From positions 1 through 58,323 of the forward strand of contig JAFZYE010000024.1 in the NCBI GenBank assembly GCA_017616445.1: a stretch of DNA of 58,323 nucleotides, in the 5' to 3' direction. A program made the translations under genes and the position numbers. How positions within the stretch are numbered: the first letter of the stretch is position 1; the number at the start of each line of letters is the position of its first letter. This document shows, piece by piece, positions 16-53,538 of the stretch. Origin of the DNA: Bacteroidaceae bacterium. Its GTDB lineage: Bacteria > Bacteroidota > Bacteroidia > Bacteroidales > Bacteroidaceae. The notes beneath the pieces were generated by a model that was not told the origin of the DNA, searched no databases, and worked only from the letters and a program-made list of their open reading frames with translations.

Positions 16-2829
16 ATGTATACATTGAAATTATTCCTTTCTATATTATCCATGACATTCCTGCCGCTCACCATGCAGGGGCAGGAGGCGATTCATGGTG
101 TGTGTGGTCTGTATGGCGACAATGTTCTGTGGGACCTGAAGGGTGATACGCTCTTCATCAGCGGACGAGGTGATATGGCGAATTATGAATGGAACAGTTC
201 TCAACGTTCGGCACCTTGGAACGCATATAGGGCACAGATTAAATGTGTCATTGTTGAGGATTCTGTCACTTCTATTGGAGAATATGCGTTCCAGCAATGC
301 GAGAAACTGACTACAGTTAGGTTTCCTCAAAGTCTGAAGAAGATTTGCAAAGGAGCTTTTTGGGAGTGTACAAATATGGATTCCATCACGTTTCCCGATA
401 GTGTTTATATTGGCGGACAAGCTTTCTACAGGTGTATCTCCTTACACTCAATCACGTTTCCTGAACATTTATTAGAATTGGGAGGAGCAGCCTTCTGGAA
501 TTGCGCCAGCCTGGATTCTATCCGCATTCCGAATACCATCACAACCTTAAAAGGCACATTTGCCGGATGCACATCCTTGCGTTATGTAGAGATTCCGAAT
601 AGCGTGAAAACCTTGGAAGGAACGGTATTTGCCAACTGCAGTTCTTTGAAATCTATCCAAATACCGAATAGTGTGAAAACATTGGGAGGAGAAGTATTCA
701 AGGGCTGTACAGACTTGGATTCCATCGTGATTCCCAACAGTGTGACAGATATTGGTATACGGGCTTTTGAAGATTGCACGCATCTGAAATCTGTCAAGTT
801 ATCGGAGAAACTCACCTCCATTCCCAGTTACGTTTTCAGAAACTGTAGCAGCCTGACTTCCATAGAGATTCCTGAAGGAGTAACGGCTATTGGGGATTAC
901 ACATTCGCAGGCTGCGAAGCCCTCTCAACTATCATCATCTCAAAGAATGTGTCAAATATTGGCTATTATGCATTCTATAACTGTATGGGAATAAAAGATT
1001 TCTTCTGCTATCCTGCCATAATGCCCAAGATATTTGAAAACGCATTTGACAACTACATGTACTGGCCGCTTCAGGCGACACTTCATGTGCCGAAGAATCT
1101 AATGAATGAGTATTCCGTCACCAAACCCTGGACAACATTCGAGCGACTCGCAGCTCTTCCCGACGCCATCGATAAAGGGAACAACTCGACGGCATACTAT
1201 ACCCTAAACAATGAAGAACAGACAGCCTCAGTGACCAGTGGTCTCGAGAAATATGTGGCGGATGTCATTATTCCTGGTCGCATCATGTCGAATGGAAAGT
1301 ACTACAACGTGACCTCTGTCGAGAACTTCTCATTCCTGAATTGTGAACAACTGACCTCTGTCTCCCTTAGCAACTCCATCAAATATGTAGGGCGCTTTGC
1401 CTTTGCCGACTGCCCAAGGTTGGAAAAGGTAAAACTACCAAGCAGCATCACTGCCATTGAAGACTACACCTTTTCAAACTGCATCAGTTTGTTTGAGATT
1501 GAGATTCCTGGCAAAGTGACCTCCATCGGTGAGGGAGCATTTGTTGGTTGCAGCAACTTGGAATCCATCTCTCTCCCAAACAAAACAACCTCTATCGGCA
1601 TGCGTGCATTTGCCGACTGCTCGTCATTAACCTCAGTTCAGCTGAATGACAAGCTGGAGGTGATTGACGACAACGCATTCGAGGAATGCAAATCGTTGAC
1701 CTCTGTGACCATTCCAAACAGCATGACTCTTCTTGGCAGTAATGCCTTTAAGGACTGCACATCATTGAAAGCCGTGACCTTCGACGGCTGTGCAGGAGAG
1801 ATCTGCCAGGATGCCTTTAGCGGTTGTACAGGATTGAAAGACATCTACTCTTATTCCGACGTGCCTCCAGCAGCCGATGAGTATGCCTTCGAGGGCAGTA
1901 ACTACGATGCGACCCTTCATGTGTCTGCCGCTTCATTGGAAGCCTATCAATCGACTGCCCCTTGGTGCTACTTCAAGCATATCATCCCACACGAGGAAGC
2001 TGCCTACGGAGGAATCGTCTTTCAGTATGAATATAATACTGAAGACCTGACAGCCACATTAGTAAAAGTCACCTTCTCTGATAACACGAATGAAGAAAGG
2101 CTGGTTATTCCTGCAGAACTCCAAGTGGAAGGAAAGACCTACAAAGTAACTACAATAGAGGAGGGAGCTATTTCGTCTTATCAGAGAAGCTTTATCACTT
2201 CCATTGAGTTGCCAAGAACTTTACGTACATTAGAACGCAATACCATATCTGTTTCAGAGCAGTTGAAAACCATCAGAATTATGGGAGATATAGAAAAAAT
2301 TGACGATTATGCGTTTGTGGCCGCTCTTTATAATGGTTTGGGGCTAATAAACTGCTCACTGAATGATTTCTACTGCTATGCATCGTTTGTTCCTGAACTC
2401 AGTCCGCTGGCTTTCAATGGACACGCTTCACGTATCAAGTCTGATGACGATATCGCAGAGTTTGAAGACAATGGAAGGACATCTTATCTGCCACGATACT
2501 TCACCTTTAACTGGTGGGAGATGGGGTATAATGAAGATGGTGCTTTCACACAGATAGCCTACCATACCGACACCAAATATCAGTACTATCTCATCGAACA
2601 TGCCACCCTCCACGTACCGGCCTACCTCGTGGAAAGCTACAAGCAGACATTCCCATGGAACATGTTCGGCAACATCGTAGCACTTACGGAGGAAGAAACC
2701 AAGATAAAGGAGACCCCCTCCGACTCCCCCTCTATGGGGAGAGAAATTGTCAACCTCAATGGACAACGCATTACCACCCTCCAGAAGGGGTTGAATATCG
2801 TAGATGGGAAAAAAGTCTTTTTAAAGTGA
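16..2829 (+). CDS. BspA-type leucine-rich repeat surface protein
   Basis: A 937-aa secreted protein made mostly of LRR_5 (BspA-type) repeats. Residues 1-22 form a signal peptide ending near TMQGQEA. Repeats of the kind AFxxCxxLxSIxIPxSVxxIG run from about residue 70 to 370 and again from 430 to 640, with a more diverged third block around 680-860. The last 27 residues (VNLNGQRITT...GLNIVDGKKV) resemble the short C-terminal domain common on Prevotella secreted proteins, possibly a sorting signal. BspA-family proteins are known for adhesion to host proteins or other bacteria; the ligand here is unknown. The stretch ETPSDSPSMGRE just before that C-terminal domain is encoded by a copy of the dispersed C-rich palindrome (2711-2743). 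Confidence 0.9.
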   Translation: MYTLKLFLSILSMTFLPLTMQGQEAIHGVCGLYGDNVLWDLKGDTLFISGRGDMANYEWNSSQRSAPWNAYRAQIKCVIVEDSVTSIGEYAFQQCEKLTTVRFPQSLKKICKGAFWECTNMDSITFPDSVYIGGQAFYRCISLHSITFPEHLLELGGAAFWNCASLDSIRIPNTITTLKGTFAGCTSLRYVEIPNSVKTLEGTVFANCSSLKSIQIPNSVKTLGGEVFKGCTDLDSIVIPNSVTDIGIRAFEDCTHLKSVKLSEKLTSIPSYVFRNCSSLTSIEIPEGVTAIGDYTFAGCEALSTIIISKNVSNIGYYAFYNCMGIKDFFCYPAIMPKIFENAFDNYMYWPLQATLHVPKNLMNEYSVTKPWTTFERLAALPDAIDKGNNSTAYYTLNNEEQTASVTSGLEKYVADVIIPGRIMSNGKYYNVTSVENFSFLNCEQLTSVSLSNSIKYVGRFAFADCPRLEKVKLPSSITAIEDYTFSNCISLFEIEIPGKVTSIGEGAFVGCSNLESISLPNKTTSIGMRAFADCSSLTSVQLNDKLEVIDDNAFEECKSLTSVTIPNSMTLLGSNAFKDCTSLKAVTFDGCAGEICQDAFSGCTGLKDIYSYSDVPPAADEYAFEGSNYDATLHVSAASLEAYQSTAPWCYFKHIIPHEEAAYGGIVFQYEYNTEDLTATLVKVTFSDNTNEERLVIPAELQVEGKTYKVTTIEEGAISSYQRSFITSIELPRTLRTLERNTISVSEQLKTIRIMGDIEKIDDYAFVAALYNGLGLINCSLNDFYCYASFVPELSPLAFNGHASRIKSDDDIAEFEDNGRTSYLPRYFTFNWWEMGYNEDGAFTQIAYHTDTKYQYYLIEHATLHVPAYLVESYKQTFPWNMFGNIVALTEEETKIKETPSDSPSMGREIVNLNGQRITTLQKGLNIVDGKKVFLK
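2711..2743. repeat. C-rich palindromic repeat, in-frame copy
   Basis: GACCCCCTCCGACTCCCCC followed by TCTATGGGGAG. Nearly the same sequence lies between genes at 33011-33044. This copy is read in frame by the BspA-like gene as ETPSDSPSMGR, between the repeat region and the C-terminal domain. Confidence 0.75.
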
Positions 2830-2860
2830 GGACCCCCCGCCCCCCTTTAGGGGGAGGAGA
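2830..2860. repeat. C-rich palindromic repeat
   Basis: GGACCCCCCGCCCCCCTTTAG followed by GGGGAGGAG, directly after the BspA-like stop codon. CCCCCTTTAGGGGG can fold as a hairpin. It belongs to the family seen at about a dozen places in this window. Confidence 0.75.
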
Positions 2861-2918
2861 AAGTGAAAGTGTATAGTTTATAGTAAAAAACGAAAAGTGA
2901 GACGTTATACAATGCATA

Positions 2919-3086
2919 ATGGAAGAAGAAATGAACAAACGAAAGGAGCAGAAAGAGCTGATTCGTAGTGTCATGGCCCAGTGTAACAAATGGGTGGATG
3001 ACGGAAGCAACATTTCCATCCATGTGACCATCGAGCATCACTATTATGGAACAATAGATCAACTAACGATAAATGGATTAGCGTAG
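2919..3086 (+). CDS. Small hypothetical protein (55 aa)
   Basis: An ATG-started frame of 55 codons, MEEEMNKRKEQKELIRSVMA at its start and ending TIDQLTINGLA. It is hydrophilic, has no signal peptide and no family I recognise. It lies between the BspA-like gene and the ATPase gene, both on the same strand. Amino acid composition looks protein-like (charged N-terminal helix, then an alternating beta-like segment), but length is short and I have no homology evidence. Confidence 0.4.
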   Translation: MEEEMNKRKEQKELIRSVMAQCNKWVDDGSNISIHVTIEHHYYGTIDQLTINGLA

Positions 3087-3096
3087 AAACTTACAG

Positions 3097-3134: not shown

Positions 3135-3228
3135 CTGTTGAATTGGTTGAAAGTGCAGAGTTTAGACTTTAGTTTGTTCAATTTTAAACATTTTCGACAC
3201 TAACTGCTCCACTCTAATATTTTTTTAC

Positions 3229-3236: not shown

Positions 3237-3266
3237 CACAGAAAAACAATAGGCATTAGATATCTC

Positions 3267-5459: not shown

Positions 5460-6692
5460 ATGAACGAAGAAGCATTTAAATTGGTTCGACAATCGGTGAT
5501 TGAATCATCGATGACTGATGACGACAGATTATTGGAAGGGCTACGCATCACTTGCGAGAAAGAACTGCCTCCCATGCATTTCCTCTTCCGTATATTCGGG
5601 AAACCTTGTTTTCCCCGCGGTGAACTTGTGGCAGTCACAGGAAAAGCCAAGAGCGGTAAGACGCTGTTCAATTCAGTATTGATGGCCTGCTGCATGCGCG
5701 ATGAGGTGCTGCAGGTACAGCGTCCCATTGATGATGACGATGGCATACGCCAGAAGCAGTATGTCAAATGTCTTTGGTATGATACAGAGCAGAGTGAGCA
5801 GTCCACACAGGACATCCTCAAAAACCGAATCGCCAGGATGGTCGGAGAAGCTGGTTCAAAGTTTCATGATGCAGGATTCGAAGTTTTTAATGTCAGGTGC
5901 CTGAATCACGATGTACGTCTGCGCCTGTTCGAGAAGGCTGTACACAAGTACCGCCCAGAACTCGTTGTGCTTGATGGCGTACGTGACCTCTTAGCAGACA
6001 TCAACGATGGCGTGAAAGCTCAGGAGATTGTGGAACGGCTGATGAAGCTGGCACAGGAGACCGATTGCTGCCTGGTATGTGTGCTGCACCAGAATAAGGG
6101 TGCAGAAGACCGCAACCTGCGAGGATGGATTGGTACGGAACTGATGAACAAAGCCTTCGAAGTATATGCATGCGAGAAGGTGAAACCAGAGAATATCTTT
6201 GCGGTGGAGCAGACCCATACGCGTAAGTACGACCTCGGAAGCCTGATGTTCTTCCGTGTGGATACGGATACCGAACTGCCAATAGTATGTGATGCCCCTA
6301 CCCGCTTTGCTACGATGAGTTGCTTTCAGCAGGCTTATCAGCAATGGGATAAGTTGCCTTACATGACCAAAGGATATCTGTGGTTCGATGAGAACAACAA
6401 ACCTCATCCGAAGACTGATGAGCTTTTCTATGAGGCGTTAAAGGCCGGTCCTTTGTATTACTGCGACTTGCAGGCCAAGGTGCAGTCGTTACTCAATTGT
6501 GGTACAGACATGTGGAACAACATGTTTCGTGAGATGCGGGACCAAGGTGCCATCATCCGCACGAAGAACAGCCAAGGGAAGTCTGTATGGACACTACCAG
6601 CAACACCAACAAAAACAACCAAACCACAAGCATCTCAACAGGACCTGTTTGACCCGCCCGCTGCCGACTCAGGCGACAGCCCCTCCTCTTAG
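5460..6692 (+). CDS. RecA-like AAA ATPase (RepA-helicase type)
   Basis: A 410-aa cytoplasmic P-loop ATPase. Walker A is GKAKSGKT (61-68), Walker B is ELVVLDGVRD (167-176), and a VLHQNKG motif (208-214) follows, as in hexameric RepA/DnaB-type RecA-fold ATPases. The C-terminal 120 residues look like a winged-helix segment (YYCDLQAKVQSLL...MWNNMFREMRDQGAIIR). Such proteins occur in Bacteroidales replication/mobilisation modules. It is followed by a DUF4248-like HTH gene and an HU-like gene, a recurring cassette. No relaxase, integrase or partition gene is nearby. The stop codon lies inside a palindrome that could terminate transcription. Confidence 0.75.
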   Translation: MNEEAFKLVRQSVIESSMTDDDRLLEGLRITCEKELPPMHFLFRIFGKPCFPRGELVAVTGKAKSGKTLFNSVLMACCMRDEVLQVQRPIDDDDGIRQKQYVKCLWYDTEQSEQSTQDILKNRIARMVGEAGSKFHDAGFEVFNVRCLNHDVRLRLFEKAVHKYRPELVVLDGVRDLLADINDGVKAQEIVERLMKLAQETDCCLVCVLHQNKGAEDRNLRGWIGTELMNKAFEVYACEKVKPENIFAVEQTHTRKYDLGSLMFFRVDTDTELPIVCDAPTRFATMSCFQQAYQQWDKLPYMTKGYLWFDENNKPHPKTDELFYEALKAGPLYYCDLQAKVQSLLNCGTDMWNNMFREMRDQGAIIRTKNSQGKSVWTLPATPTKTTKPQASQQDLFDPPAADSGDSPSS

Positions 6693-6721
6693 GCCCCTAT
6701 ATATAGGGCCTTAGAGGGGGG
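6680..6721 (+). terminator. GC-rich palindrome overlapping the ATPase stop codon
   Basis: CCTCTTAGGCCCCTATATA then TAGGGCCTTAGAGG forms a long stem. The TAG stop (6690-6692) is part of the first arm. It has no T-tract, so it may be an RNA-stabilising hairpin or a member of the C-rich palindrome family rather than a classic terminator. Confidence 0.5.
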
Positions 6722-6819
6722 CTTAGGCCTAGAATAGTCGAGAGTAAGTCAGAGATCATCCCCGTTAGATGTTAAGATTTTCTGTAGTGTCAAACAATTA
6801 AACAATAATCAATAGACTT

Positions 6820-7234: not shown

Positions 7235-8068
7235 ATGGGAAAAATCAAGTATTCTGTACGTGAGACGACCGTGAAATGGGGCGACCATGCAGGCGAGAAG
7301 CGTTACAGCGCCAACCTGCAGACCAGCGGCACTATATCACTCGACAAATTTGCCGAACACATGGCCGACCACGACTGCAAGTACAACAAAGGTGACATCT
7401 ACTCTGTCCTGCTCCAGATGTCGAAGTGTATTCGTGAATTCATCCTTGATGGATATATGGTCAGTCTGGGTGACCTGGGTGTCATCAGTCCGCGAATCAA
7501 GCAGAAAGCAGCAACTGTGCGTGAAGAGTACAGCGCAGGCAACATCACCGACCTGTATGCCACACTCAAGATTGGTCCGGCACTGATCAACATGCGAGGC
7601 GAGGCATCCTTCGAGTACGCCCCTACTCTTGCGAGTCAGGCACTGCTCGTAGCAGCGATTCGAGAGGGAGCCAACTCTGTCAGCCTTGTCAAGCCGACAT
7701 CAGGTTCGGGCAACAGCGGTCAGAACAATGGAGGCAGTGGTTCTTCTTCGACTGGCTCAGAACAGGGTGGTTCAAATGGTTCAAGCAGTTCAAGTTCCGT
7801 AACTGCTCCAACCATCAGCGGAACGACTCCGTTCGATGACTCTACTCAGATAACCATCTCAGGTCCTGCAGGTGCAACCATCAAGTACACCACCAACGGT
7901 GTAGCTCCAACCGCTACATACGGTAACGACTACGAGGAGCCTATCACCCTCAATGCATCCGCAACCGTCAAGGCAGTAGCCATCATCGATGGCGTAGCCA
8001 GCGAAGTAGCTACGAAGCAGTTCACTAAGAACGGTAGTAGCGGTGGCGGAGGTGAGGAAGGAATGTAG
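7235..8068 (+). CDS. HU-like DNA-binding protein with chitobiase-type C-terminal domain
   Basis: A 277-aa protein. Residues 1-130 match the Bacteroidales HU-like (HU-HIG) fold: IKYSVRETTVKWGDHAGEKR, then LLQMSKCIREFILDGYMVSLGDLG (59-82) and a basic PRIKQKAATVREEY arm. Residues 155-188 are a Gly/Ser-rich linker. Residues 190-265 match the CHB_HEX_C-type beta-sandwich (PTISGTTPF...TIKYTTNG). HU-like proteins bind DNA; the appended domain is usually seen on extracellular enzymes, so its role inside the cell is unclear. No signal peptide. It closes the ATPase/HTH/HU cassette; the amidase and tiny smalltalk gene often found downstream are absent. Confidence 0.8.
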   Translation: MGKIKYSVRETTVKWGDHAGEKRYSANLQTSGTISLDKFAEHMADHDCKYNKGDIYSVLLQMSKCIREFILDGYMVSLGDLGVISPRIKQKAATVREEYSAGNITDLYATLKIGPALINMRGEASFEYAPTLASQALLVAAIREGANSVSLVKPTSGSGNSGQNNGGSGSSSTGSEQGGSNGSSSSSSVTAPTISGTTPFDDSTQITISGPAGATIKYTTNGVAPTATYGNDYEEPITLNASATVKAVAIIDGVASEVATKQFTKNGSSGGGGEEGM

Positions 8069-8096
8069 CCCCCCCGACCCCCTTTAGGGGGAGGGA
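8069..8096. repeat. C-rich palindromic repeat
   Basis: CCCCCCCGACCCCCTTTAGG then GGGAGGG, directly after the HU-like stop codon. Same family as 2830-2860. Confidence 0.75.
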
Positions 8097-8110
8097 AAAG
8101 CCACCAAAGC

Positions 8111-8195
8111 ACCTCCCCCTCATTGGAGGAAAACAAAAACAGCAGACCCGCCCCCCAAGCCCCCTCCCTCTATGGCGGGGGTGACGGGTGGAGGA
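8111..8195. repeat. C-rich palindromic repeats, two diverged units
   Basis: ACCTCCCCCTCATTGGAGG forms one short hairpin. Then GACCCGCCCCCCAAGCCCC with TCCCTCTATGGCGGGGG forms a second unit related to the copy at 33011-33044. Confidence 0.65.
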
Positions 8196-9560: not shown

Positions 9561-9682
9561 TTAGAAGTTAGGAGTTAGGAGTTAGAAGTTAGGAGCTCAG
9601 GAGTGTCAGACGATACTTTGTAGACCTCTCAACTCTAAACTATTAAACTGACTATAAACTATAAACTTTAAACTATCAACTT
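9561..9682. repeat. Two heptamer tracts
   Basis: First tract (9565-9599): AGTTAGG/AGTTAGA units upstream of the secreted protein gene. Second tract (about 9629-9682): AACTCTA, AACTATA, AACTTTA and AACTATC units, running up to the GH115 stop codon. Both keep a 7-bp period. Confidence 0.7.
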
Positions 9683-15235: not shown

Positions 15236-15370
15236 GCTATTATTGAATTGAAGGGCTTTGAAGGGAAGTTAAAGGGAAGTTAAAGGGACCTTTCCATTCA
15301 TTTTAGCCATTTTACTATTTACATTCTACATTTTACATCTCCTCCCCCCAAGGGGGGGGTAGGGGGGCCC
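15236..15370. repeat. Spacer: 11-mer, heptamers and C-rich palindrome
   Basis: AAAGGGAAGTT is repeated in tandem near 15262-15285. Heptamer-phased ATTTACA-TTCTACA-TTTTACA lies near 15315-15338. A C-rich palindrome CCTCCCCCCAAGGGGGGGG follows at 15341-15370, up to the map stop codon. Confidence 0.65.
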
Positions 15371-16239
15371 TAGTATGTCAACACTTCCAGCCCGTCTTCT
15401 GTCATCAGGAACGTATGCTCCCACTGAGCAGAGTCGGAATAGTCTTCTGTATAAACCGTCCAACCATCATCTTCATCCACCACAACTTCCCAACCACCAG
15501 CATTGACCATCGGCTCGATGGTGAACACCATCCCTGGTACCAGCAGCATACCGCTACCCTTCTTGCCGTAATGCTCCACATCAGGTTCTTCGTGGAAAGC
15601 ATTACCGACCCCATGTCCACATAGGTCACGAACGATGGTGTACCCGTTCTTGTGGGCATATTTCGCAATCGCGTTTCCCATATCACCTACGAACGTATAA
15701 GGCTTGCACACCTCTGCTCCGAGATCCAGACACTCCTTTGCCACACGCACCAACCGCTCGCGCTCAGGAGAGGTTTTACCGATGATGAACATACGGCTGG
15801 CATCAGCGAAGTAACCATCAAGGATGGTGGTGACATCTACATTCACAATATCGCCCTCTTCCAACACCTCGTCCTCGCTGGGGATACCATGACAGACGAC
15901 ATCGTTCCGCGACACACACACGCTTTTGGGATAGCCTTCATAGTTCAGTGGTGCAGGGATACCTCCATGACTGACGGTGAACTCATGCACCAAACGATTG
16001 ATGGCCTCAGTCGTCATTCCTTCATGTATCTTCTCTGCCACAAGGTCGAGTACGGCAGTATTCAGTACACCCGCCTTGCGGATACCCTCAATCTGTTCAG
16101 GGGTCTTTATCAACTCACGCATAGGGCACAACTTACCTTTGTTCTGAAAACTCAAGATACGCTTGTCCATTTCTGTGAGTGGTTGTCCTTTTATCGGACG
16201 CCAATTCTTTGGAATCCTTTTGAAAATATTCATACGCAT
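15370..16239 (-). CDS. map: Methionine aminopeptidase with N-terminal extension
   Basis: A type I methionine aminopeptidase of about 289 aa from the MRMNIFKRIP start. The usual catalytic core is preceded by about 40 residues (FKRIPKNWRPIKGQPLTEM...). Metal ligands are all present: VNVDVTTILDGYFADASRM (two Asp), GHGVGNAFHEEP (His), FTIEPM (Glu) and WEHTF (Glu), plus substrate His in VCHGIPS. It removes the initiator Met from nascent proteins. The extension has no zinc-finger cysteine pattern. Stands between tsaD and the HhH gene. Confidence 0.95.
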   Translation of the reverse strand: MRMNIFKRIPKNWRPIKGQPLTEMDKRILSFQNKGKLCPMRELIKTPEQIEGIRKAGVLNTAVLDLVAEKIHEGMTTEAINRLVHEFTVSHGGIPAPLNYEGYPKSVCVSRNDVVCHGIPSEDEVLEEGDIVNVDVTTILDGYFADASRMFIIGKTSPERERLVRVAKECLDLGAEVCKPYTFVGDMGNAIAKYAHKNGYTIVRDLCGHGVGNAFHEEPDVEHYGKKGSGMLLVPGMVFTIEPMVNAGGWEVVVDEDDGWTVYTEDYSDSAQWEHTFLMTEDGLEVLTY

Positions 16240-16293
16240 AACAAAACTGATGCAAAGGTACAAAAAAGATTGCGAACCTGTGCAGGAATTGTT

Positions 16294-17193
16294 TCAAAAA
16301 ATGTAATTACGTAGCTTTTCCAGTTCTTCATCAGTGAAGATACGGGTAGCTCGGAGCTGTTCTTCGCTGATGATTGGTCCATAAATGCGTTGATAGTTAC
16401 TGATTGCTTTTGCCTTTTCGTAACCGATATACGGAAATCGAGACATCTCTGCGAATGTCATATCGCTGAGCTGAATATGACGAATTTGAGCGGCATCGAC
16501 AGTGAACCATTCAAGCATCGATGGCTCTACATGCTTCACCTCCAACAACTGCTCCACGGCATAGAACCCACCCAACTTATCTCGTCGGTCCACAATCCAT
16601 CGGGCGATGTTCGAACCGATACCTGGTATTCGTTTCAGCAGGTTGGTGTCGGCAGAATTCACCTCCACCTTCGTGGGGTTGTCGAATTTAGGAACATACG
16701 TGGTTTCTTTGGTTGGCTGTGAGGTTGTGGAAAGGGTGTAATCAGCTTTCTCGGAGTGGAGACGACTATCTCTCTTGGCATGCGCAGCAGCCCGTATCTT
16801 CACCTTCGGCATCAACCGCTCTATGTCACGTTCGCTGAGAGTATAGAGACGTTGGATGTCCTGAGGTTCGTAGAACAACCCTCCAGCCTCTCGATAGCGT
16901 ACCCATGCATGAGCTTGATAAGGTTGAAGTCCCAATGCCACCAATGATGCGGAATCCACCGTGTTGGGGTCAAAACTCTCTGGCAACTCTCCTTCAACCT
17001 CTGGAGCCGAAGAACTTGAATCCTGAAACCTGAAACTTGAATTTTGAGCACCTTGCCCCTCGTTCCCCCTAAAGGGGGTGAGGGGGTCCGACTTTTCCTC
17101 TCGGCCGCCAAACAGCACGATGCCCAAGACAATCACGCATGCCACCACAGCCAACGCAATCAGAGCCCTTCTGTCCGCCTTCGATTCGCCCAT
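16294..17193 (-). CDS. Helix-hairpin-helix (ComEA-like) membrane-anchored protein
   Basis: A 299-aa protein with one N-terminal membrane helix (LIALAVVACVIVLGIVLFGG, 11-30) and several HhH-type motifs: FDPNTVDSASLVALGL (74-89), VEVNSADTNLLKRIPGIGSNIA (177-198) and MTFAEMSRFPYIGYEKAKAI (245-264). ComEA-like proteins bind double-stranded DNA outside the membrane during uptake, but a DNA-uptake role here is not shown. Residues about 35-48 (SDPLTPFRGNEGQG) are encoded by a C-rich palindromic repeat, in the linker after the membrane helix. Last gene of the block DUF2807-DUF4886-trmB-mrp. Confidence 0.8.
   Translation of the reverse strand: MGESKADRRALIALAVVACVIVLGIVLFGGREEKSDPLTPFRGNEGQGAQNSSFRFQDSSSSAPEVEGELPESFDPNTVDSASLVALGLQPYQAHAWVRYREAGGLFYEPQDIQRLYTLSERDIERLMPKVKIRAAAHAKRDSRLHSEKADYTLSTTSQPTKETTYVPKFDNPTKVEVNSADTNLLKRIPGIGSNIARWIVDRRDKLGGFYAVEQLLEVKHVEPSMLEWFTVDAAQIRHIQLSDMTFAEMSRFPYIGYEKAKAISNYQRIYGPIISEEQLRATRIFTDEELEKLRNYIF
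17051..17090. repeat. C-rich palindromic repeat inside the HhH gene
   Basis: Minus strand GACCCCCTCACCCCCTTTAG then GGGGGAACGAGGGG is read in frame as DPLTPFRGNEG. It matches the family consensus better than most intergenic copies. Confidence 0.75.
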
Positions 17194-19055: not shown

Positions 19056-20024
19056 CTATTCTTCGTTTACAAATTCGCTGATGTTGTAGTTGTTGGCTAC
19101 TGCCAGACGTGCACAGTTCTGAATCTTCCGACGATTGGTGTCGTTGACAATATCGGGTTCTTTCTTCCCGTAAACCGTACGGTCGTCCCTCAAATTGACA
19201 TTGAAGCAGGGTGCGATGAGTGTTTCGAATACGGTGCAGGCCAACAGGTAGCGTCCCTGATAGGTGCTAATATGCTGATTGTCGCGTGTCCATTCGTTGT
19301 CTGTAGTCACAGACGTAAGACTACGTGCATTCTGCACGGCTGTACCGCAAGGAATGATGATATCGATGCCCGATTTCTGCTTCATGGCATTGGATGCCTC
19401 ACAAATCCTACGCCACATCTCTTCTTGGGTTCCATAGCGTTTGATGTCCTTATGACGGGACGAATAAGCCCAAGTCTGATTGAAGGCGAATGTGGTGCGT
19501 GGTGAGATGGTGTTGATCTTATATGCCTCAAGTACTTTTGAGAGATAAGGCTCATAGGATTCGTAGTTGCCCGACTCCAATGAATACTGCTGGAACACCA
19601 CAATATCGTATGCGAACCGTCGCATCACATTGCGTATGGTGGTCTTGCTTTCGAGTTTCTTCTCGCCTCGCGAGTCGTACATCCACAGTTCGTACACAGG
19701 ATCGTCATTCTTGTAGTACTCGTAGTGTTGCTTCATGGAGCACCCACCCTTGTAGAGCACATACACGGCCACGGTACTAAGTTTAGCCGACCGCAACAGC
19801 TGCGGCAGGGCTGTACATGCATCAATAGAGAATGAGTTGCCAATGAACAGCACATCAAGCTTATAGGGCAGATACGGAAGTGGTGTGTTGCAGAAGTAAC
19901 CCTGTTCGTTACCCACTGTCTGTGCCTGAAGAAGTCCCCCACCGACTCCCCAAAGAGGGAGCAACAGGAAAGCCAACTTCAAAAGCCCCCTATACATTTT
20001 ACATTTTACATTATACATTTTCAT
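19056..20024 (-). CDS. DUF4886 SGNH-like secreted protein
   Basis: Up to 322 aa. [14 protein letters not shown] near residue 57 and the following layout identify DUF4886, an SGNH-hydrolase-like family; the catalytic Ser would be in GNSFS. The ATG at 20024 overlaps the upstream stop as ATGA, but its first 10 codons come from a TACATTTT-like heptamer tract. A second ATG at 19997 is equally possible. The hydrophobic core [23 protein letters not shown] is the signal peptide, and its second half is encoded by a C-rich palindromic repeat (19931-19965). Substrate unknown. Confidence 0.8.
19931..19965. repeat. C-rich palindromic repeat in a signal peptide
   Basis: AAGTCCCCCACCGACTCCCC then AAAGAGGGAGCAA; the minus strand reads in frame as [11 protein letters not shown], part of the DUF4886 signal peptide. 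Confidence 0.7.
19988..20024. repeat. Heptamer tract supplying a start codon
   Basis: TATACATTTTACATTTTACA then TTATACATTTTCAT, ACATTTT/ACATTAT units. On the minus strand it encodes [10 protein letters not shown], the first residues of the DUF4886 protein. Confidence 0.7.
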
Positions 20025-20954: not shown

Positions 20955-20982
20955 CTCTAAACTCTAAACTCTAAACTCTAAA
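20955..20982. repeat. Perfect heptamer array CTCTAAA x4
   Basis: Four exact CTCTAAA units end 8 bp before the TATCTTTG promoter element of slyD, occupying the place where a -33 box would be. Confidence 0.85.
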
Positions 20983-20990
20983 CTTTTTCG

Positions 20991-21641: not shown

Positions 21642-22660
21642 ATACATTCGGCAACATATTCAGACTGACGACTTTCGGAGAAAGTCATGGTGAAGCATTA
21701 GGAGGTGTGATTGACGGCATGCCTTCGGGGATTGATGTGGATATGGAGTTCATTCAATCGGAACTTGACCGTCGTCGTCCTGGTCAGGGTATGCTGACTA
21801 CCGCTCGCAATGAAGCAGACAAGGTAGAAATCCTCTCAGGTGTCTTTGAAGGCAAGACGACAGGCTGCCCTATCGGATTCGTCGTACGAAATGCCGACCA
21901 TCATTCAGCCGACTACACGAATATCAAGGATGTGTATCGTCCATCGCATGCGGACTACACCTATCAGATGAAGTATGGTATTCGTGACTACAGAGGTGGA
22001 GGACGCACCTCTGCCCGCGAAACCCTGTGCAGGGTTGTAGGTGGTGCATTTGCTAAGTTGGTGTTGCGTGAGAAAGGCATTGTGATTGAAGCAGACATCC
22101 TACAGGTGGGTAATCAGAAACTACAAGGAACTCGTGAAGAACGTCAGGCACAACTCGAAGAGGTGGTGAAAGCCGTGAGAGCTGAGAACGACAGCATCGG
22201 AGGTATCATCGGATGTACCATACGGAATTGTCCAGTAGGATTAGGTGAACCCGTCTTTGGCAAACTCAATGCAGCACTCGGAGCCGCTATGCTTTCCATC
22301 AATGCCGTGAAGGGATTTGATCTGGGTGACGGTTTCGAGGGTGTAGGACAGAAAGGCTCGGAGATGAACGATGAATTCTACAACGACCACGGACGTATCC
22401 GCACGCGTACCAATCACAGCGGAGGCATCCAGGGAGGAATCAGCAACGGTGAGGACATCAACTGCCGTGTGTTGTTTAAACCTGTGCCTACCATCCTTCG
22501 TGAACAGCATACCGTCAATACCGCAGGTGAAGAAGTCACGTTCACAGCCAAAGGGCGACACGATCCGTGTGTGCTCACCCGAGCAGTACCCATCGTGGAA
22601 GCGATGGCAGCGATGACCATTCTGGACTATATGGAGATGAAAGAGACCCACCACCTTTAG
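21638..22660 (+). CDS. aroC: Chorismate synthase
   Basis: A 340-aa enzyme, start [20 protein letters not shown] at 21638, overlapping slyD by 4 nt. Signatures: [38 protein letters not shown] and RHDPCV. It makes chorismate from EPSP using reduced FMN, the last shikimate step. The final residues KETHHL and the TAG stop are encoded by a C-rich palindromic repeat (22641-22680), so the natural C-terminus has been trimmed or replaced by the repeat. Confidence 0.96.
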
Positions 22661-22680
22661 GGAGAGCGGGGAGAGGGTCT
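22641..22680. repeat. C-rich palindromic repeat providing aroC stop
   Basis: AAGAGACCCACCACCTTTAG then GGAGAGCGGGGAGAGGGTCT. The TAG in CCTTTAG is the aroC stop codon. Confidence 0.7.
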
Positions 22681-22687
22681 AAATTTT

Positions 22688-22736
22688 ACATTATACATTA
22701 TACATTTTACATTTTACTTTTTACATTTTACATTAT
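22688..22736. repeat. Heptamer array ACATTTT/ACATTAT x7
   Basis: Seven consecutive 7-bp units: ACATTAT x2, ACATTTT x2, ACTTTTT, ACATTTT, ACATTAT. It ends 6 bp before the ssb start, so the ssb ribosome-binding region is made of repeat. Confidence 0.85.
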
Positions 22737-33003: not shown

Positions 33004-33010
33004 TAAAAAG

Positions 33011-33044
33011 AAGACCCCCTCCCCGCTCCCCCTCTATGGGGAGT
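33011..33044. repeat. C-rich palindromic repeat
   Basis: GACCCCCTCCCCGCTCCCCC then TCTATGGGGAG, directly after ilvC; the closest match to the in-frame copy at 2711-2743. Confidence 0.8.
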
Positions 33045-33069
33045 GCGATTACTTGGCAAGGTCGAAACA

Positions 33070-33096
33070 AATAGCTCCCCGATTTGAGGAGCTATT
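33070..33096 (+). terminator. Hairpin terminator after ilvC
   Basis: AATAGCTCC (33070-33078) pairs with GGAGCTATT (33088-33096), followed by ATTGT. Weak T-tract. Confidence 0.6.
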
Positions 33097-33120
33097 ATTG
33101 TATACACCAGCAGAGATTAT

Positions 33121-33160
33121 ACTCCCCTCCCTCGCAGGGAGGGGTTAAAGGGGGAGGGTC
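33121..33160. repeat. C-rich palindromic repeat
   Basis: ACTCCCCTCCCTCGCAGGGA then GGGGTTAAAGGGGGAGGGTC, at the 3' side of the minus-strand SGNH gene. CCCTCGCAGGG can fold. Confidence 0.7.
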
Positions 33161-33162
33161 TG

Positions 33163-33831
33163 TTATTTCTTCAGCTGCTCTGCGATGGCTTTCATGCCTG
33201 CGATGGAGGGGTGACCTCCTTTCTTGTCGATGTTGCGGAGTTCGACGAGTTTCACATTATAGTGCTTGCAGATTTCGCGGACTGATGCGTTGACCTCTTC
33301 CTTCAGTTCGGAGTTGAGGATGAAGATGATCTGGGTGTTGAGGTAGCGGTTGGTCATGTGGTGGAGCATGTAGGCCATAGCTGGACGGAAGGAATAGAGG
33401 TCCTGCTTGGTCCATCGCTCGTACTTGTAATCACCGATGGGCGAATTGGCCCATGCGTCGTTCGTACCGCCAAAGATATAGATGATGTCGGGTGCACCTC
33501 CGAGGTTGTCCATACGGGCAAGGAACGAGTTGCGGGTGACATCCTCCTGACGATAGCCTGTGTTGCAGATGGTGGAGCCTGAGAACGAGTTGTTCTTCAG
33601 CAGTCGCCAGCCTTTGGCTTTGATGAGCTGATGCCACCAGGTCTGGGTGACACTGGTCACATCGGTCTGCGTGCGAGGTGTACCGTCGAAGTACCACACA
33701 TAATTCGTGTCAGGTTCAAGATAGCCTTGGAACGTGCTGTACGAGTCACCAAGGATGGATACAGTTTTGATTTGTGCACTTGCAGTGAGGCACAGCGCCA
33801 TCATGATGAAGTGGATGAATACTCTTTTCAT
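33163..33831 (-). CDS. SGNH/GDSL-family secreted hydrolase
   Basis: A 222-aa secreted esterase-like protein. Signal peptide MKRVFIHFIMMALCLTASA. The SGNH blocks are ILGDSYSTF (Ser, block I), GGTND (block III Gly/Asn) and HPSIAG (block V, catalytic His; Asp two to three residues earlier in the KKGGHP loop is not obvious). Enzymes of this group remove acetyl or other acyl groups, often from polysaccharides. Substrate unknown; the neighbourhood suggests carbohydrate esters. Confidence 0.85.
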   Translation of the reverse strand: MKRVFIHFIMMALCLTASAQIKTVSILGDSYSTFQGYLEPDTNYVWYFDGTPRTQTDVTSVTQTWWHQLIKAKGWRLLKNNSFSGSTICNTGYRQEDVTRNSFLARMDNLGGAPDIIYIFGGTNDAWANSPIGDYKYERWTKQDLYSFRPAMAYMLHHMTNRYLNTQIIFILNSELKEEVNASVREICKHYNVKLVELRNIDKKGGHPSIAGMKAIAEQLKK

Positions 33832-33875
33832 ATATTATAAATTATACATTATAAATTATACATTAATTATACATT
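33832..33875. repeat. Heptamer tract AAATTAT/ACATTAT
   Basis: ATTATAAATTATACATTATA then AATTATACATTAATTATACATT, mostly 7-bp units, between the SGNH gene and the lipoprotein gene. Confidence 0.7.
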
Positions 33876-33876
33876 A

Positions 33877-34467: not shown

Positions 34468-34507
34468 ATTTCAGTGATTTTGTAGTGCAAAGATAAGAAT
34501 TTATTGT

Positions 34508-34535
34508 AAATTATAAATTATAAATTATAAATTAT
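34508..34535. repeat. Perfect heptamer array AAATTAT x4
   Basis: Four exact AAATTAT units ending 3 bp before the -7 box of the CE15 gene, in the -33 position. Confidence 0.85.
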
Positions 34536-37505: not shown

Positions 37506-37586
37506 AGCAACACGGCTTGTTACTACGAGCAACACGGCTTCTCGCTATGAGCAACACGGCCTCTCGCTATGAGCGATACGGCTCAC
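37506..37586. repeat. 22-bp tandem repeat, three and a half copies
   Basis: AGCAACACGGCTTGTTACTACG, then two copies with CTTCTCGCTATG or CCTCTCGCTATG endings (37528-37549, 37550-37571), then a partial copy AGCGATACGGCTCAC. Two helical turns per unit. Confidence 0.8.
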
Positions 37587-40402: not shown

Positions 40403-40430
40403 CAAAAAAAGTAACCCGTAGGCTACTTTT
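40403..40430 (-). terminator. Terminator of the tRNA operon
   Basis: Minus strand AAAAGTAGCCTACGGGTTAC then TTTTTTTG: eight-pair stem with a TACG loop and a T-tract, following the second tRNA-Gly. Confidence 0.85.
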
Positions 40431-40431
40431 G

Positions 40432-40504
40432 AGCGGAAAACGAGACTCGAACTCGCGACCCCAACCTTGGCAAGGTTGTGCTCTACCAACTGAGCTATTT
40501 CCGC
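40432..40504 (-). tRNA. tRNA-Gly(GCC)
   Basis: 73 nt, identical to the neighbouring copy. Acceptor GCGGAAA pairs with TTTCCGC, anticodon loop TTGCCAA (GCC), T-loop GTTCGAGTC, discriminator U. CCA is not encoded. Confidence 0.96.
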
Positions 40505-40524
40505 AATTGCGTATCTTTAATGTG

Positions 40525-40597
40525 AGCGGAAAACGAGACTCGAACTCGCGACCCCAACCTTGGCAAGGTTGTGCTCTACCAACTGAGCTATTTCCGC
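40525..40597 (-). tRNA. tRNA-Gly(GCC), second copy
   Basis: Same 73-nt sequence as 40432-40504, 93 bp apart; evidently a tandem duplication with a 20-bp spacer. Confidence 0.96.
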
Positions 40598-40610
40598 AAT
40601 TACAATAATG

Positions 40611-40691
40611 TGCCCAGAACAGGACTCGAACCTGCACGGCTCTCACCACTCGCACCTGAAACGAGCGCGTCTACCATTCCGCCACCTGGGC
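40611..40691 (-). tRNA. tRNA-Leu(CAG)
   Basis: 81 nt with a short variable arm. Acceptor GCCCAGG/CTGGGC, anticodon stem CTCGT/GCGAG around loop TTCAGGT (anticodon CAG), T-loop GTTCGAGTC, discriminator A, no encoded CCA. First of three tRNA genes transcribed together. Confidence 0.95.
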
Positions 40692-50098: not shown

Positions 50099-50645
50099 AT
50101 TGTTTCAGATTTTGCTTGATGATATTCATTGTTTTGTGCAGACGCGATTTCACCGTTCCTTCGGGGAGATTGGTGATTCGCGCTATTTGGGGAACTGTCA
50201 GTTCCTCTTCATAGTGGAGCGAAAAGAGCATCGCGTATGGTTCGGGGAGTTTTCGTAACACTTCACGAAGGGCTTCATGAAGACCTTTCATGTCTAGTTC
50301 AACTTCAATACTAACCTCATCGGTGATGTCCACATCCTCATCAGAAACCATTTCCAACTGGTTACGATGGTGATTCCGACAAAGGTTATAGGCGATGGTG
50401 AAGAGCCAGGCACGAAAGTTACTCCCTTCGTGATAGGTTTCACGGGCGGCATAGAGACGCAGAAACGTGTCGTGCATGAAATCGGCAGCGAGGTCGGCAT
50501 CGTCGCCTAACCTTCGGACGAAGAAACCCTGCAACCGTCGGGCATAACGGTTGTAGAGTTCCTCGAAGGCACGGTCGCTACCTCTGGCGGCACGTTCCAT
50601 CAGTTGCTCATCGGACTGTGCCGATAGTCGTAGGGGTATCAGCAT
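50085..50645 (-). CDS. ECF-type RNA polymerase sigma factor
   Basis: A 186-aa sigma-70 family factor. Region 2 at about 25-95 (AFEELYNRYARRLQGFF...ADFMHDTFLRLYAARETYHEGSNFRAWLFTIAYNLCRNHHR) and region 4 at about 125-180 (LRKLPEPYAMLFSLHYEEELTVPQIARITNLPEGTVKSRLHKTMNIIK). It lacks region 3. It directs transcription of an unknown set of genes. It lies 3 nt from the secreted-protein gene and overlaps the membrane-protein gene, suggesting one regulatory unit. Confidence 0.92.
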   Translation of the reverse strand: MLIPLRLSAQSDEQLMERAARGSDRAFEELYNRYARRLQGFFVRRLGDDADLAADFMHDTFLRLYAARETYHEGSNFRAWLFTIAYNLCRNHHRNQLEMVSDEDVDITDEVSIEVELDMKGLHEALREVLRKLPEPYAMLFSLHYEEELTVPQIARITNLPEGTVKSRLHKTMNIIKQNLKQYEYH

Positions 50646-50648
50646 AAC

Positions 50649-51803: not shown

Positions 51804-52017
51804 TTTTGTTCTGTTTTTTATGATTAAACGATTCCAGAGCAGCTCTTTCATTACCGCATACACAGAAAGCAGGAAATCGTTCACGAGAAAATGAAATAAT
51901 AGACAAAGTTAGCTACTATTTCCTAATCGGCCTTTGCTATATCCACCTACTCCTACAATTTTTATAGAAAAACAACACTTTTTTACGTGATTCTTTTCCC
52001 TATTCATGAAAAAGCAG

Positions 52018-52025
52018 TAACTTTG
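52018..52025 (+). promoter_or_regulatory. -7 promoter element of MFS gene
   Basis: TAACTTTG followed by CCTTGC, an exact TAnnTTTG match 31 bp before the gene. Confidence 0.7.
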
Positions 52026-52055
52026 CCTTGCTAATCAAATATATACTGAACATTT

Positions 52056-53504
52056 ATGAGCAATCAATCTACCCAGACAAAGCTGATGACCAACTGGCGT
52101 TGGTGGCTTTGTTCGTTGCTTTTCGTGGCAACAACCATTAACTACCTCGACCGTCAGGTCTTGAGTCTTACGTATGAAGAGTTTATCAAACCCGAATTTG
52201 GTTGGACAGATGACGACTACGGCAAAATCACCTCATTCTTCAGCATCTTCTATGCCATCTGTTGTCTGTTCGCAGGTAAGTTCATCGACTGGATGGGCAC
52301 CAAGAAAGGTTACCTGTGGAGTATTGGTGTATGGAGTGCAGGTGCCTGCCTACATGCCCTCTGCGGATGGGGAACCTCGTTGCTGACCGGCTCACCCGAT
52401 CTTGCAGCTGCAACTAAGATTGGTTCAAATGCCGCATTGGCTTTCTCCACCACATCGGTTTACCTCTTCCTCTTCTGTCGAGGCATCCTGGCGCTTGGAG
52501 AGTCAGGCAACTTCCCCGCAGCCATTAAGGTGACAGCAGAATACAATCCAAAGAAAGACCGAGCTTACTCTACGAGTCTGTTCAATGCAGGAGCCAGCGT
52601 AGGAGCACTTGCAGCTCCACTCTGCATTCCACCATTGGCAAAGAGTCTCGGATGGGAATGGGCATTTATCGTTATTGGTGCCTTCGGATTCCTGTGGATG
52701 TTCTTCTGGCACTTCATGTACGACAAACCTGAGAAGAGCAAGCATGTGAATCAGGCTGAACTCGACTACATCCATCAGGACGACGAAGCCGAGGCAGCAG
52801 AGAAGGCTGCGTTGAAGGAAGAGAAAGCCATCCCGTTCCTCAAGTGCTTCACCTATCGTCAGACTTGGTCGTTCATCTGTGGAAAACTGCTCACCGATGG
52901 AGTGTGGTGGTTCTTCCTCTTCTGGGCACCATCCTATTTCCAGAATCAATTTGGTATTAAGGCATCCGAGCCACTCGGTCAGGGTCTTATCTTCACCCTG
53001 TATGCCATTGTGACCGTTGTCAGCATCTTCGGTGGCTACCTCCCCAAGCTCTTTGTCGAGAAACGTGGTATGCACCCTTACAGCGGACGTATGCTCGCCA
53101 TGCTCATCTTTGCCTTCTTGCCACTTGTTGCCCTTGCTGCTCAGCCACTCGGCGTACAGAGCCCATGGTGGCCAGCCATCCTCATCGGTATCGCGGCAGC
53201 AGGTCACCAGGCTTGGTCGGCTAACCTGTTCTCTACCATCGGCGACATGTTCCCAAAGAGTACCATCGCTACCATCACAGGTGTGGGAGCTACAGCAGGT
53301 GGAGCAGGTTCTATGGTGATTCAGTTCGTAGCAGGAAAACTCTTCACACATGCAGAGGAAGCAGGAGCAGCCTTCCAGTTCATGGGTTTCGAAGGTAAGC
53401 CAGCAGGTTATTTCATCATGTTCTGCTTCTGCGGTATCGCTTACATCATCTCTTGGATTGGCATGAAGTTGCTGGTACCGAAATACAGCCCAATCAAGGC
53501 GTAA
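52056..53504 (+). CDS. MFS transporter, hexuronate (ACS family) type
   Basis: A 482-aa 12-helix permease. N-terminal WWLCSLLFVATTINYLDRQVLSLTYE contains the YLDRQVLS motif of the anion:cation symporter family (ExuT). GRGILALGESGNFPAAIKVTAEYNPKKDRAYSTSLFNAG is the family's loop and helix. Likely imports glucuronate or galacturonate released by the GH115 and CE15 enzymes, though specificity is inferred. The central loop has an acidic, Ala/Glu-rich stretch (EAEAAEKAALKEEKA). Confidence 0.88.
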   Translation: MSNQSTQTKLMTNWRWWLCSLLFVATTINYLDRQVLSLTYEEFIKPEFGWTDDDYGKITSFFSIFYAICCLFAGKFIDWMGTKKGYLWSIGVWSAGACLHALCGWGTSLLTGSPDLAAATKIGSNAALAFSTTSVYLFLFCRGILALGESGNFPAAIKVTAEYNPKKDRAYSTSLFNAGASVGALAAPLCIPPLAKSLGWEWAFIVIGAFGFLWMFFWHFMYDKPEKSKHVNQAELDYIHQDDEAEAAEKAALKEEKAIPFLKCFTYRQTWSFICGKLLTDGVWWFFLFWAPSYFQNQFGIKASEPLGQGLIFTLYAIVTVVSIFGGYLPKLFVEKRGMHPYSGRMLAMLIFAFLPLVALAAQPLGVQSPWWPAILIGIAAAGHQAWSANLFSTIGDMFPKSTIATITGVGATAGGAGSMVIQFVAGKLFTHAEEAGAAFQFMGFEGKPAGYFIMFCFCGIAYIISWIGMKLLVPKYSPIKA

Positions 53505-53507
53505 GAG

Positions 53508-53538
53508 AGGACCCTCCCCCGCTCTAGGGCGGGGAGTA
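53508..53538. repeat. C-rich palindromic repeat
   Basis: AGGACCCTCCCCCGCTCTAG then GGCGGGGAGTAG after the MFS stop. CCCCGCTCTAGGGCGGGG is a strong hairpin. Confidence 0.75.

What the first reader, a model, noticed from the sequence alone, without database searches (positions are those of the whole stretch)
2711..53538. Family of C-rich palindromic repeats that also writes into genes
About a dozen copies of GACCCCCTC...CCCTTTAGGGGGAG occur in 58 kb (2711, 2830, 6680 as a relative, 8069, 8111-8195, 15341, 17051, 19931, 22641, 33011, 33121, 53508). Most sit directly after stop codons, as REP elements do. At least four are read in frame: BspA C-terminal linker, HhH protein linker, a signal peptide and the aroC C-terminus with its stop codon. 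REP-type repeats rarely invade coding frames so often. It may be a mobile miniature element with a tolerated reading frame (D/E-P-L/S-...-R/G).
Basis: seen in the sequence. Interest (0 to 1): 0.72.

Follow-up and report, generated by a model that had tools for sequence, protein, structure and literature searches.

The report
Mobile palindromes inside and between genes
A gut bacterium and its relatives carry many copies of a short C-rich palindromic DNA element that sits against gene starts and stops and is also read as extra protein inside ordinary genes, a habit best known from Rickettsia and from REP repeats, while no mobilising enzyme was found for it.

Summary
The family is real. A profile finds 10 copies in the window (E<0.1; 5 of them in its training set) and at least 127 in the genome; an exact pattern gives 13 hits against 0 for its reversed control. 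The half unit is AGACCCCCTC..CTCCCC-loop-GGGGAG; full units (109-152 bp) carry two inverted halves. Of 67 copies scored intergenic, 25 have their CAGACCC end within 15 nt of a gene, 0 the other end. About 26 of 85 lie in reading frames. Orthologues (8 to 13 of 17 genus species per gene) show occupied and empty sites in MtaB, a RecD-like helicase, XseA, MnmA and at tyrA. The genome's only Y1 transposase is flanked by another repeat, and Y1 does not track this family. Open frames match composition. A sub-type outside the window sits 2-4 nt before start codons in 18 of 18 aligned copies, with a loop-to-RBS-region pairing that changes in concert in 3 of 18. Best read as a REP/REPIN/RPE-like mobile family with unknown mobiliser: a new variant of a known kind.

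The parts
2711..2746 (+). half element, type A2, read in frame (ETPSDSPSMGRE) near the C-terminus of the BspA-type LRR protein (ORF 16-2829)
   Evidence: R1 52.9 bits, in training set; translation; LRR_5
2830..2861 (+). half element directly after the BspA stop codon (TGA at 2827-2829)
   Evidence: R1 34.7 bits, in training set; sequence
8067..8098 (+). half element overlapping the TAG stop of ORF 7235-8068
   Evidence: R1 27.9 bits, not in training set
8144..8184 (+). half element; its CCCTCCCTCTATGGCGGGGGTGAC resembles the left end of the complete unit before mnmA in G003 (by eye)
   Evidence: R1 20.6 bits, not in training set
15339..15371 (-). half element at the stop of the M24 peptidase gene (15370-16263, minus)
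   Evidence: R1 19.2 bits, not in training set; Pfam
17058..17089 (-). half element read in frame (SDPLTPFRGNEG) after the N-terminal hydrophobic stretch of the HhH protein (16294-17193, minus)
   Evidence: R1 30.1 bits, in training set; orthologues in G001, G003, G007 lack it
19933..19966 (+). weak half element whose minus strand codes the hydrophobic part of the signal-peptide region ([12 protein letters not shown]) of the DUF4886 protein (19056-20024, minus)
   Evidence: R1 14.2 bits, E 0.086; codons; DUF4886; signal peptide judged by eye
22645..22685 (+). right-end copy fused to the aroC 3' end; the aroC TAG stop lies in its loop
   Evidence: R2 16.5 bits, E 0.012; shared sequence with the G014 locus; no R1 match
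33012..33048 (+). alpha half, 8 nt after the ilvC stop codon
   Evidence: R1 49.1 bits, in training set; also in G014, absent in G006 and G007
33117..33161 (-). beta half abutting the stop of the convergent gene 33163-33831 (minus); 33012-33161 enclose a terminator-like hairpin
   Evidence: R1 17.6 bits, not in training set
53509..53538 (+). half element 4 nt after the stop of the MFS transporter gene (52056-53504)
   Evidence: R1 23.8 bits, in training set; Pfam

Best explanation
The copies are a family of short, non-autonomous mobile palindromic elements of the REP/REPIN/MITE type. Shown: a half unit (AGACCC + pyrimidine tract + CTCCCC-loop-GGGGAG hairpin) occurs alone or as two inverted halves making a 109-152 bp unit from CAGACCC to GGGTCTG; whole units are present in some and absent in other sister species at the same site; one nested composite occurs, 139 of 145 identical, in two genes of one genome; copies lie at gene borders and in linkers or termini of proteins, where the DNA supplies predicted start codons (xseA), stop codons (aroC) or extra peptide. 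Inferred: the element moves by an unidentified mechanism (not the resident Y1 transposase, as far as flanks and co-occurrence tell); insertion is largely blind to frame; selection removes damaging copies, so survivors sit just after stops, just before starts, or in frame in tolerant linkers. The low stop content of the GC-rich sequence makes in-frame survival easy. A sub-type (B2, outside the window) may work as an RNA leader at operon junctions: its loop CCTCCCC can pair with GGGGAGG 8 nt before the start codon.
For: Model and counts; control 0. Patchy: 12 of 17 genus genomes with R1 hits, 5 of 17 with none; 17 of 81 in the family sample. Occupied and empty sites: tyrA junction occupied in G000, G011, G007, but with a gap of only -4 to 22 nt in G006, G003, G014 (5, by eye), G010, G012, G016; RecD-like loop occupied in G011 (full unit) and G003 (another form), not in G014, G006, G007, G000, G004, G008, G010, G012; MtaB linker occupied in G003, G011, G006 and in part in G001, not in G000, G007, G014, G008. 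mnmA N-terminus: shared by G000 and G014, absent in G011, G006, G007, G013, G005, G002. The predicted xseA start codon lies inside the unit in G000, G006, G007, G011. Nested composite 139 of 145. Full-unit alignment of 9 copies, mean column identity 80%. Border polarity 25 of 67 against 0 of 67.
Against: No mobilising enzyme found; no target-site duplication seen at the tyrA site. No pair of strains of one species was available, so each gain or loss is between species. Half elements alone fold no better or little better than shuffles (z -0.95, -1.95, -0.12). In the U32 linker and at ilvC the flanks differ too much to define the inserted length. The border polarity rests on a crude gene caller (10 of 67 copies had no called gene on the CAGACCC side, 9 on the other), and in a second set of 45 R1 matches, partly from other genera, 15 were scored in genes and only 7 of the other 30 had the CAGACCC end within 15 nt of a gene. 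B2's nearly fixed distance to ATG is more than chance insertion plus clean-up would easily give and points to function.
Confidence: 0.7

Rival explanations
1. Functional RNA elements of the host (3'-end stabilisers after stops, RBS-masking leaders before starts) kept by selection, with mobility only in the past.
For: Polarity at gene borders; B2 leader: GGGTCT end 2 nt (16), 3 (1) or 4 (1) before ATG in 18 aligned copies; loop, RBS-like G-run and the alpha stem change together; B2 found in three genera, at aroG-type genes in two of them and at mutA-like genes in two; score gap 77.6 against 47.9 bits.
Against: About 26 of 85 copies lie inside reading frames, where such a role is unlikely; B2 itself is present or absent at tyrA among sister species; the pairs changed on both sides come from the same 3 of 18 sequences, perhaps one event, and two of the five measures do not stand out (4 pairs with a change on both sides, reached by 25 of 500 shuffles; further pair types, by 451 of 500).
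Confidence: 0.35
2. REPs mobilised in trans by the Y1 (TnpA-REP/RAYT-like) transposase of these genomes.
For: REP-like anatomy and placement; G000, G003 and G011 each have one Y1_Tnp; in G008 a weak C-rich match (E 0.22) lies about 220 nt behind a Y1 gene, and in G365 one match (E 0.004) lies about 1.4 kb from another.
Against: The G000 and G011 enzymes are flanked on both sides by another repeat family; Y1_Tnp in 4 of 12 genus genomes with R1 hits and 2 of 5 without; R1 matches in only 2 of 31 Y1 loci tested, none on both sides. MAG completeness of 51-94% weakens the absence argument.
Confidence: 0.12
3. Unrelated GC-rich stretches or intrinsic terminators.
For: Hairpins follow stop codons; a merely C-rich pattern is not above its control.
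Against: Specific pattern with 0 control hits and a model that separates genomes with many hits from 5 of 17 with none; the window copies read have no T-run after the hairpin on their own strand; native terminator-like hairpins exist beside or instead of the copies at ilvC.
Confidence: 0.02

Closest known systems
Rickettsia palindromic elements (RPE)
   Same: Short palindromic elements repeatedly read in frame in unrelated genes (review PMC10969869, passages read; the original papers are not held, and are recalled)
   Different: Different phylum and, as far as recalled, sequence; the review gives ~150 bp, a conserved peptide per element and nearly half of the copies in genes, whereas here several frames and both strands are used, open frames are only what composition gives, and about two thirds of the exact copies are intergenic
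REP / REPIN elements with RAYT (TnpA-REP)
   Same: Singlets and inverted pairs, often next to the 3' ends of genes, stop codons supplied, some in-frame copies (PMC3733652 sections 15-16 read; REPIN paper PMC3116915 seen in a listing only)
   Different: No GTAG head before the hairpin in the consensus, no associated Y1 transposase found
CGTC-tagged REPs
   Same: REP-like, partly intragenic, not associated with transposase genes (PMC3733652 section 16)
   Different: No CGTC tag in the consensus of these copies
Bacteroidetes TnpA-REP subclass 2.6 and subclass 1.2
   Same: Bacteroidetes Y1 enzymes; subclass 2.6 genes have atypical structures also found elsewhere in the genome (PMC6006769, sections 23 and 25 and passages read); the resident Y1 resembles subclass 1.2 by its YIKNQ motif
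   Different: The resident Y1 pairs with another repeat family, not the C-rich one

Membership tests
REP (GTAG- or CGTC-tagged) | short palindromic repeat in high copy, mostly extragenic | tested here: met
   >=127 R1 matches in G000; 67 of 85 exact copies scored intergenic by a simple caller, 59 after hand correction
REP (GTAG- or CGTC-tagged) | GTAG or CGTC tag at one end of the hairpin | tested here: not met
   Consensus AGACCCCCTCCnnCTCCCCCTCTATGGGGAGAG; GTAG appears only behind the GGGGAG arm of some alpha halves
REPIN | two inverted REPs forming a unit | tested here: met
   16 rows with both ends, 13 distinct copies after removing overlapping or nested readings, 9 copies aligned
REPIN | cognate RAYT gene flanked by the repeat | tested here: not met
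   31 of 54 fetched Y1 loci tested
MITE | terminal inverted repeats | tested here: met
   CAGACCC..GGGTCTG; outer stem in the consensus fold
MITE | target-site duplication | tested here: inconclusive
   none seen at the tyrA comparison; flanks diverged elsewhere
Rickettsia palindromic elements | in-frame insertion in many unrelated genes | tested here: met
Rickettsia palindromic elements | sequence homology to RPE families | not tested
   RPE sequences were not fetched
Intrinsic terminator | hairpin followed by T-run | tested here: not met
   reading of the window copies; no terminator scan was run
Rfam families | match above gathering score | tested here: not met
   window: only four tRNA matches; four B2 loci: 11 matches, all below gathering score

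The most novel reading that the evidence does not exclude
A mobile palindromic element adapted to operons: one sub-lineage carries its own ribosome-binding site and a pseudoknot that can mask it, so it can drop into the few bases between a stop and the next start codon without killing translation, putting genes such as aroG, tyrA, argG, argD, sdhA and gldL under a common, spreading RNA leader, while other sub-lineages enter reading frames and donate start codons, stop codons and linkers to housekeeping proteins - all without a Y1 transposase.
Probability: 0.3. Interest if true: 0.8.

Novelty: new variant of a known kind. Interest (0 to 1): 0.58.

Why it matters
It extends protein-coding palindromes, best known from Rickettsia, to uncultured gut Bacteroidota, with occupied and empty sites among sister species, so that how such elements move, why they end at gene borders and how proteins absorb them become testable. 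The start-codon-anchored sub-type is a candidate RNA leader that spreads between operons and matched no Rfam family in the loci tested. Annotation also gains: several N-termini and linkers in this clade are repeat-derived.

Tried and rejected
Site 6680: matched by neither R1 nor R2; rejected. A plain C-rich pattern was no better than its control; dropped for a structured one. Y1 transposase as local partner: tested in G000, 61 genomes (relatives and own) and 8 distant genomes, flanks of 31 of 54 fetched Y1 loci; rejected for lack of association, with two one-sided matches told under the rivals. A designed reading frame: stop-free frames equal the composition expectation; rejected. Phage carriage: 0 matches of one strict pattern in viral contigs. 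Autonomous element with these ends: same-orientation pairs 1.2-1.45 kb apart turned out to be neighbouring genes each with its own copy; none seen, but not searched systematically. AlphaFold on the RecD-like protein with its insert gave mean pLDDT 51.8 from a 10-sequence alignment; the insert is low-confidence coil, but so is much of the model: uninformative. Single hairpins fold little or no better than shuffles. One copy against easy tolerance: L001 appears to shift the frame of a C-terminal domain (read by eye; not proven). Literature: six sequence words of the element found in 0 papers; the listings showed no description of this family, which does not prove absence. My gene caller is crude: trained on window ORFs, it missed N-terminal extensions, and I corrected 8 of 85 rows by hand (L006, L027, L031, L037:2955, L040, L074, L091 twice); 4 rows from distant genomes were dropped beforehand (89, 85). 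One search classified 45 of the 61 R1 matches (15 in genes, 4 near starts, 3 near stops, 23 other). One search gave only weak TrkA-type matches for the N-terminus of the gene that I call tyrA-like, and none for the mutA-like, korB-like and acetyltransferase-like ones (argG was not submitted); those names are by eye.
Full report
Observation. I aligned 26 half elements from five genomes, the window's included (A3), and built covariance model R1. In the window it returns ten matches with E<0.1; five were in the training set, the other five (8067, 8144, 15339-, 33117-, 19933) were not. The exact pattern GACCCCCTCN{2,12}CCCCN{3,10}GGGGAG has 13 places in the 2.38 Mb, 70%-complete genome G000 and none for the reversed control; a looser, merely C-rich pattern was not above its control. 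With R1, G000 has 127 matches at E<=0.1; only 150 of 760 candidates were scored, so this is a lower bound; with stricter filters and E<=0.01 it has 71. Site 6680 is not a member. Site 22641 is a decayed right end, supported by R2 and by the same sequence behind aroC in G014.

Distribution. In the genus, 12 of 17 genomes have R1 matches (G003 90, G011 86, G007 75, G015 57, G006 52, G014 48, G016 40, G009 31, G001 15, G013 9, G004 8, besides G000) and 5 of 17 have none at E<=0.1. In a family sample 17 of 81 have matches at E<=0.01, patchily: G491 35 and G030 8 in one genus where G471 has 0; G505 20 in another. In the phylum sample the exact pattern occurs in 16 of 395 genomes; of the distant copies looked at, most have no long open frame across them and a few are in frame, for instance in integrase-like genes (gene type by eye); they may be independent. 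Equal contig lengths identify G006, G007, G011 and G014 with metagenome assemblies labelled uncultured Bacteroidales or Bacteroidaceae, two of them from sheep reticulum and buffalo rumen; so 'Prevotella' is only approximate, and G000 itself was not named.

Anatomy. The half unit reads AGACCC, a pyrimidine tract, then a CTCCCC-loop-GGGGAG hairpin with variable loop. Full units have two inverted, unlike halves: alpha (CAGACCCCCTCCCCGCTCCCCC..GGGGAGAGTNNTTACC) and beta (CAGACCC(A/T)CCCCC..CCCCTCCCT..AGGGAGGGGAGTGGTTACC). Sixteen rows with both ends, 13 distinct copies, were found in the fetched loci, and nine copies were aligned. As DNA, one full unit folds better than its shuffles (z -2.84), another less so (z -1.78), single halves little or not. 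In G003 a nested composite of 145 bp lies in both mtaB and a neighbouring glycosyltransferase-like gene, 139 of 145 identical: it was copied as a composite.

Gene borders. Of 85 distinct exact-pattern copies in the genus loci, a simple gene caller placed 18 in genes (one of them only in part) and 67 between them. Among the 67, the CAGACCC end lies within 15 nt after a same-strand stop in 20 and within 15 nt before the start of an opposite-strand gene in 5; the other end does so in 0. Inspection of open frames and orthologues moves 8 of the 67 into genes, giving about 26 of 85. A second set of 45 R1 matches, partly from other genera, gives 15 in genes and 7 of 30 near a border, a weaker trend. 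At aroC, and as TGACCCCC at the gene upstream of mnmA in G000 and G014 (by eye), the copy supplies the stop codon.

In-frame copies and empty sites. Protein searches over all 17 genus genomes gave orthologues, of which I compared those whose loci I held. RecD-like helicase, 10 species: G011 carries a full unit in a loop, G003 another form in the same loop; G014, G006, G007, G000, G004, G008, G012, G010 have none. MtaB, 8 species: the linker before the radical-SAM part holds a full unit in G003 and G011, another form in G006, a part in G001; G000, G007, G014, G008 have none. MnmA, 13 species: N-terminal extension shared by G000 and G014 with a shorter relative in G004; G011, G006, G007, G013, G005, G002 have the short start; G003 has a complete unit between the two genes. 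XseA, 11 species: in G000, G006, G007 and G011 the predicted start codon lies inside the unit, which is read in frame; G003 has a half, G014 other repeats, G001 9-bp tandem repeats; G004, G005, G015, G016 none. tyrA-like gene, 9 species: a ~140 bp unit between stop and start in G000, G011, G007; the gap is -4 nt in G006, 4 in G003, 5 in G014 (by eye), 12 in G010, 16 in G012, 22 in G016. The U32 linker is filled with different sequences, several of them repeats, in different species, so nothing about ends can be read from it. The frames used include DPLxLPLYGE and TPSxSPSMGR (sense), LPIEGExEGV and SPHRGGAGRGS (antisense). Stop-free frames are not enriched: 1-3 of 6 in full units against 1.3-2.2 expected from composition, 4-5 in halves against 4.5-5.2. 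So frames are tolerated because the sequence is GC-rich, not because it is built to code.

Mobiliser. G000 has one Y1_Tnp match, an enzyme with HVH and YIKNQ motifs resembling subclass 1.2 of PMC6006769. On both sides it carries another repeat (GCCCCAAAGGGGCGACAT and GATAGGG..CCCTATC), as does its G011 relative; that repeat also stands at 58151-58323 of the window. Y1_Tnp matches occur in 4 of 12 genus genomes with R1 hits (G000, G003, G011, and weakly G013) and 2 of 5 without (G005, G008). Over 31 Y1 loci, of 54 fetched, R1 finds two single matches: one (E 0.004) about 1.4 kb away in G365, one (E 0.22) about 220 nt behind the gene in G008; none is two-sided. Completeness of 51-94% limits the absence argument. 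The mobiliser remains unknown.

An unexpected sub-type. Looking at other genera showed copies whose alpha end stands immediately before start codons, joined to a second hairpin (GTAGAAT..ATTCTAC) with loop CCTCCCC. Eighteen copies from G000, G006, G007, G011, G491, G030 and G505 were aligned (A6): the distance from GGGTCT (GGGTCC in one) to ATG is 2 nt in 16, 3 in one, 4 in one. Sixteen came from patterns that did not fix the distance (14 of 14, 16 of 16), two (L086, L337) were added by hand; only loci chosen for R1-type matches or their orthologues were looked at. Downstream genes: DAHP synthase (aroG-type), argD-type transaminase, another aminotransferase, a succinate dehydrogenase/fumarate reductase flavoprotein and GldL; by eye only, tyrA-, argG-, mutA- and korB-like genes and an acetyltransferase. 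Loop CCTCCCC is complementary to GGGGAGG, 8 nt before ATG. Counting the pairs of two hairpins plus this pseudoknot gives 98.1% paired cells; four pairs change on both sides, two in the alpha hairpin and two in the pseudoknot; 0 of 500 shuffles reach the covariation score and slid versions score lower, but 25 of 500 reach four such pairs and 451 of 500 the number of further pair types. All four changes occur in the same three sequences, so they may be one event. Model R2 separates this sub-type (24 rows at 77.6 bits or more, 19 distinct copies of which 18 trained the model) from other alpha ends (47.9 or less). Four B2 loci gave no Rfam match above gathering score. Whether the G-run acts as a ribosome-binding site is not tested; that Bacteroidota rarely use Shine-Dalgarno pairing is recalled. 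R2 finds no complete B2 copy in the window; its best window match is the alpha end at 33007-33068 (35 bits).

Known kinds. In-frame palindromes are known from Rickettsia (RPE; review PMC10969869, passages read) and from GTAG and CGTC REPs (PMC3733652, sections 15 and 16 read), which also sit at gene ends, may supply stop codons and are reported in many DNA synthesis and repair genes; here XseA, XseB (by eye) and a RecD-like helicase are hit too. The present family lacks the GTAG or CGTC tag and a partner transposase, so it is not filed as either, but it behaves like them.

Verdict. Real, mobile-like, REP/REPIN/RPE-like, with an unknown mobiliser: new variant of a known kind. The start-anchored sub-type is the most novel part and needs an experiment.

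Noticed in passing
58151-58323: Second palindromic repeat family (GGCGACATAT, GGATAGGGTGTGAACCCTATC, GATAGGGCTAACACCCTATCC), the one that flanks the only Y1_Tnp found in the genome (L014) and its relative in G011 (L055).
   Followed up: partly
9561-9604, 19993-20021, 20955-20984, 22683-22734, 33830-33876, 34503-34535, 56244-56316: Tandem 7-bp repeats (TTAGGAG, TACATTT, CTCTAAA, ATTTTAC classes), some beside the C-rich copies; at about 19991-20024 such sequence codes the first residues of the DUF4886 protein.
   Followed up: no
40430-40601: 79-bp exact repeat, 93 bp apart, carrying two identical tRNA genes, with a third tRNA next to it (40611-40691).
   Followed up: no
37506-37583: 22-bp tandem repeat AGCAACACGGCTTCTCACTACG, 3.5 copies.
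   Followed up: no
6680-6725: AT-centred palindrome at the stop codon of ORF 5460-6692, not a member of the C-rich family.
   Followed up: partly
L295 878-943, 3837-3903, 4596-4662: Three copies of the start-anchored leader sub-type before three nearby genes (argD-type, argG-like, acetyltransferase-like) in one genome (G491) of another genus.
   Followed up: partly
L233 and L265, upstream of xseA: In G001 (and the matching record L265) the xseA leader is filled by 9-bp tandem repeats (CCCATAAGG-like) where sister species have the C-rich unit.
   Followed up: no
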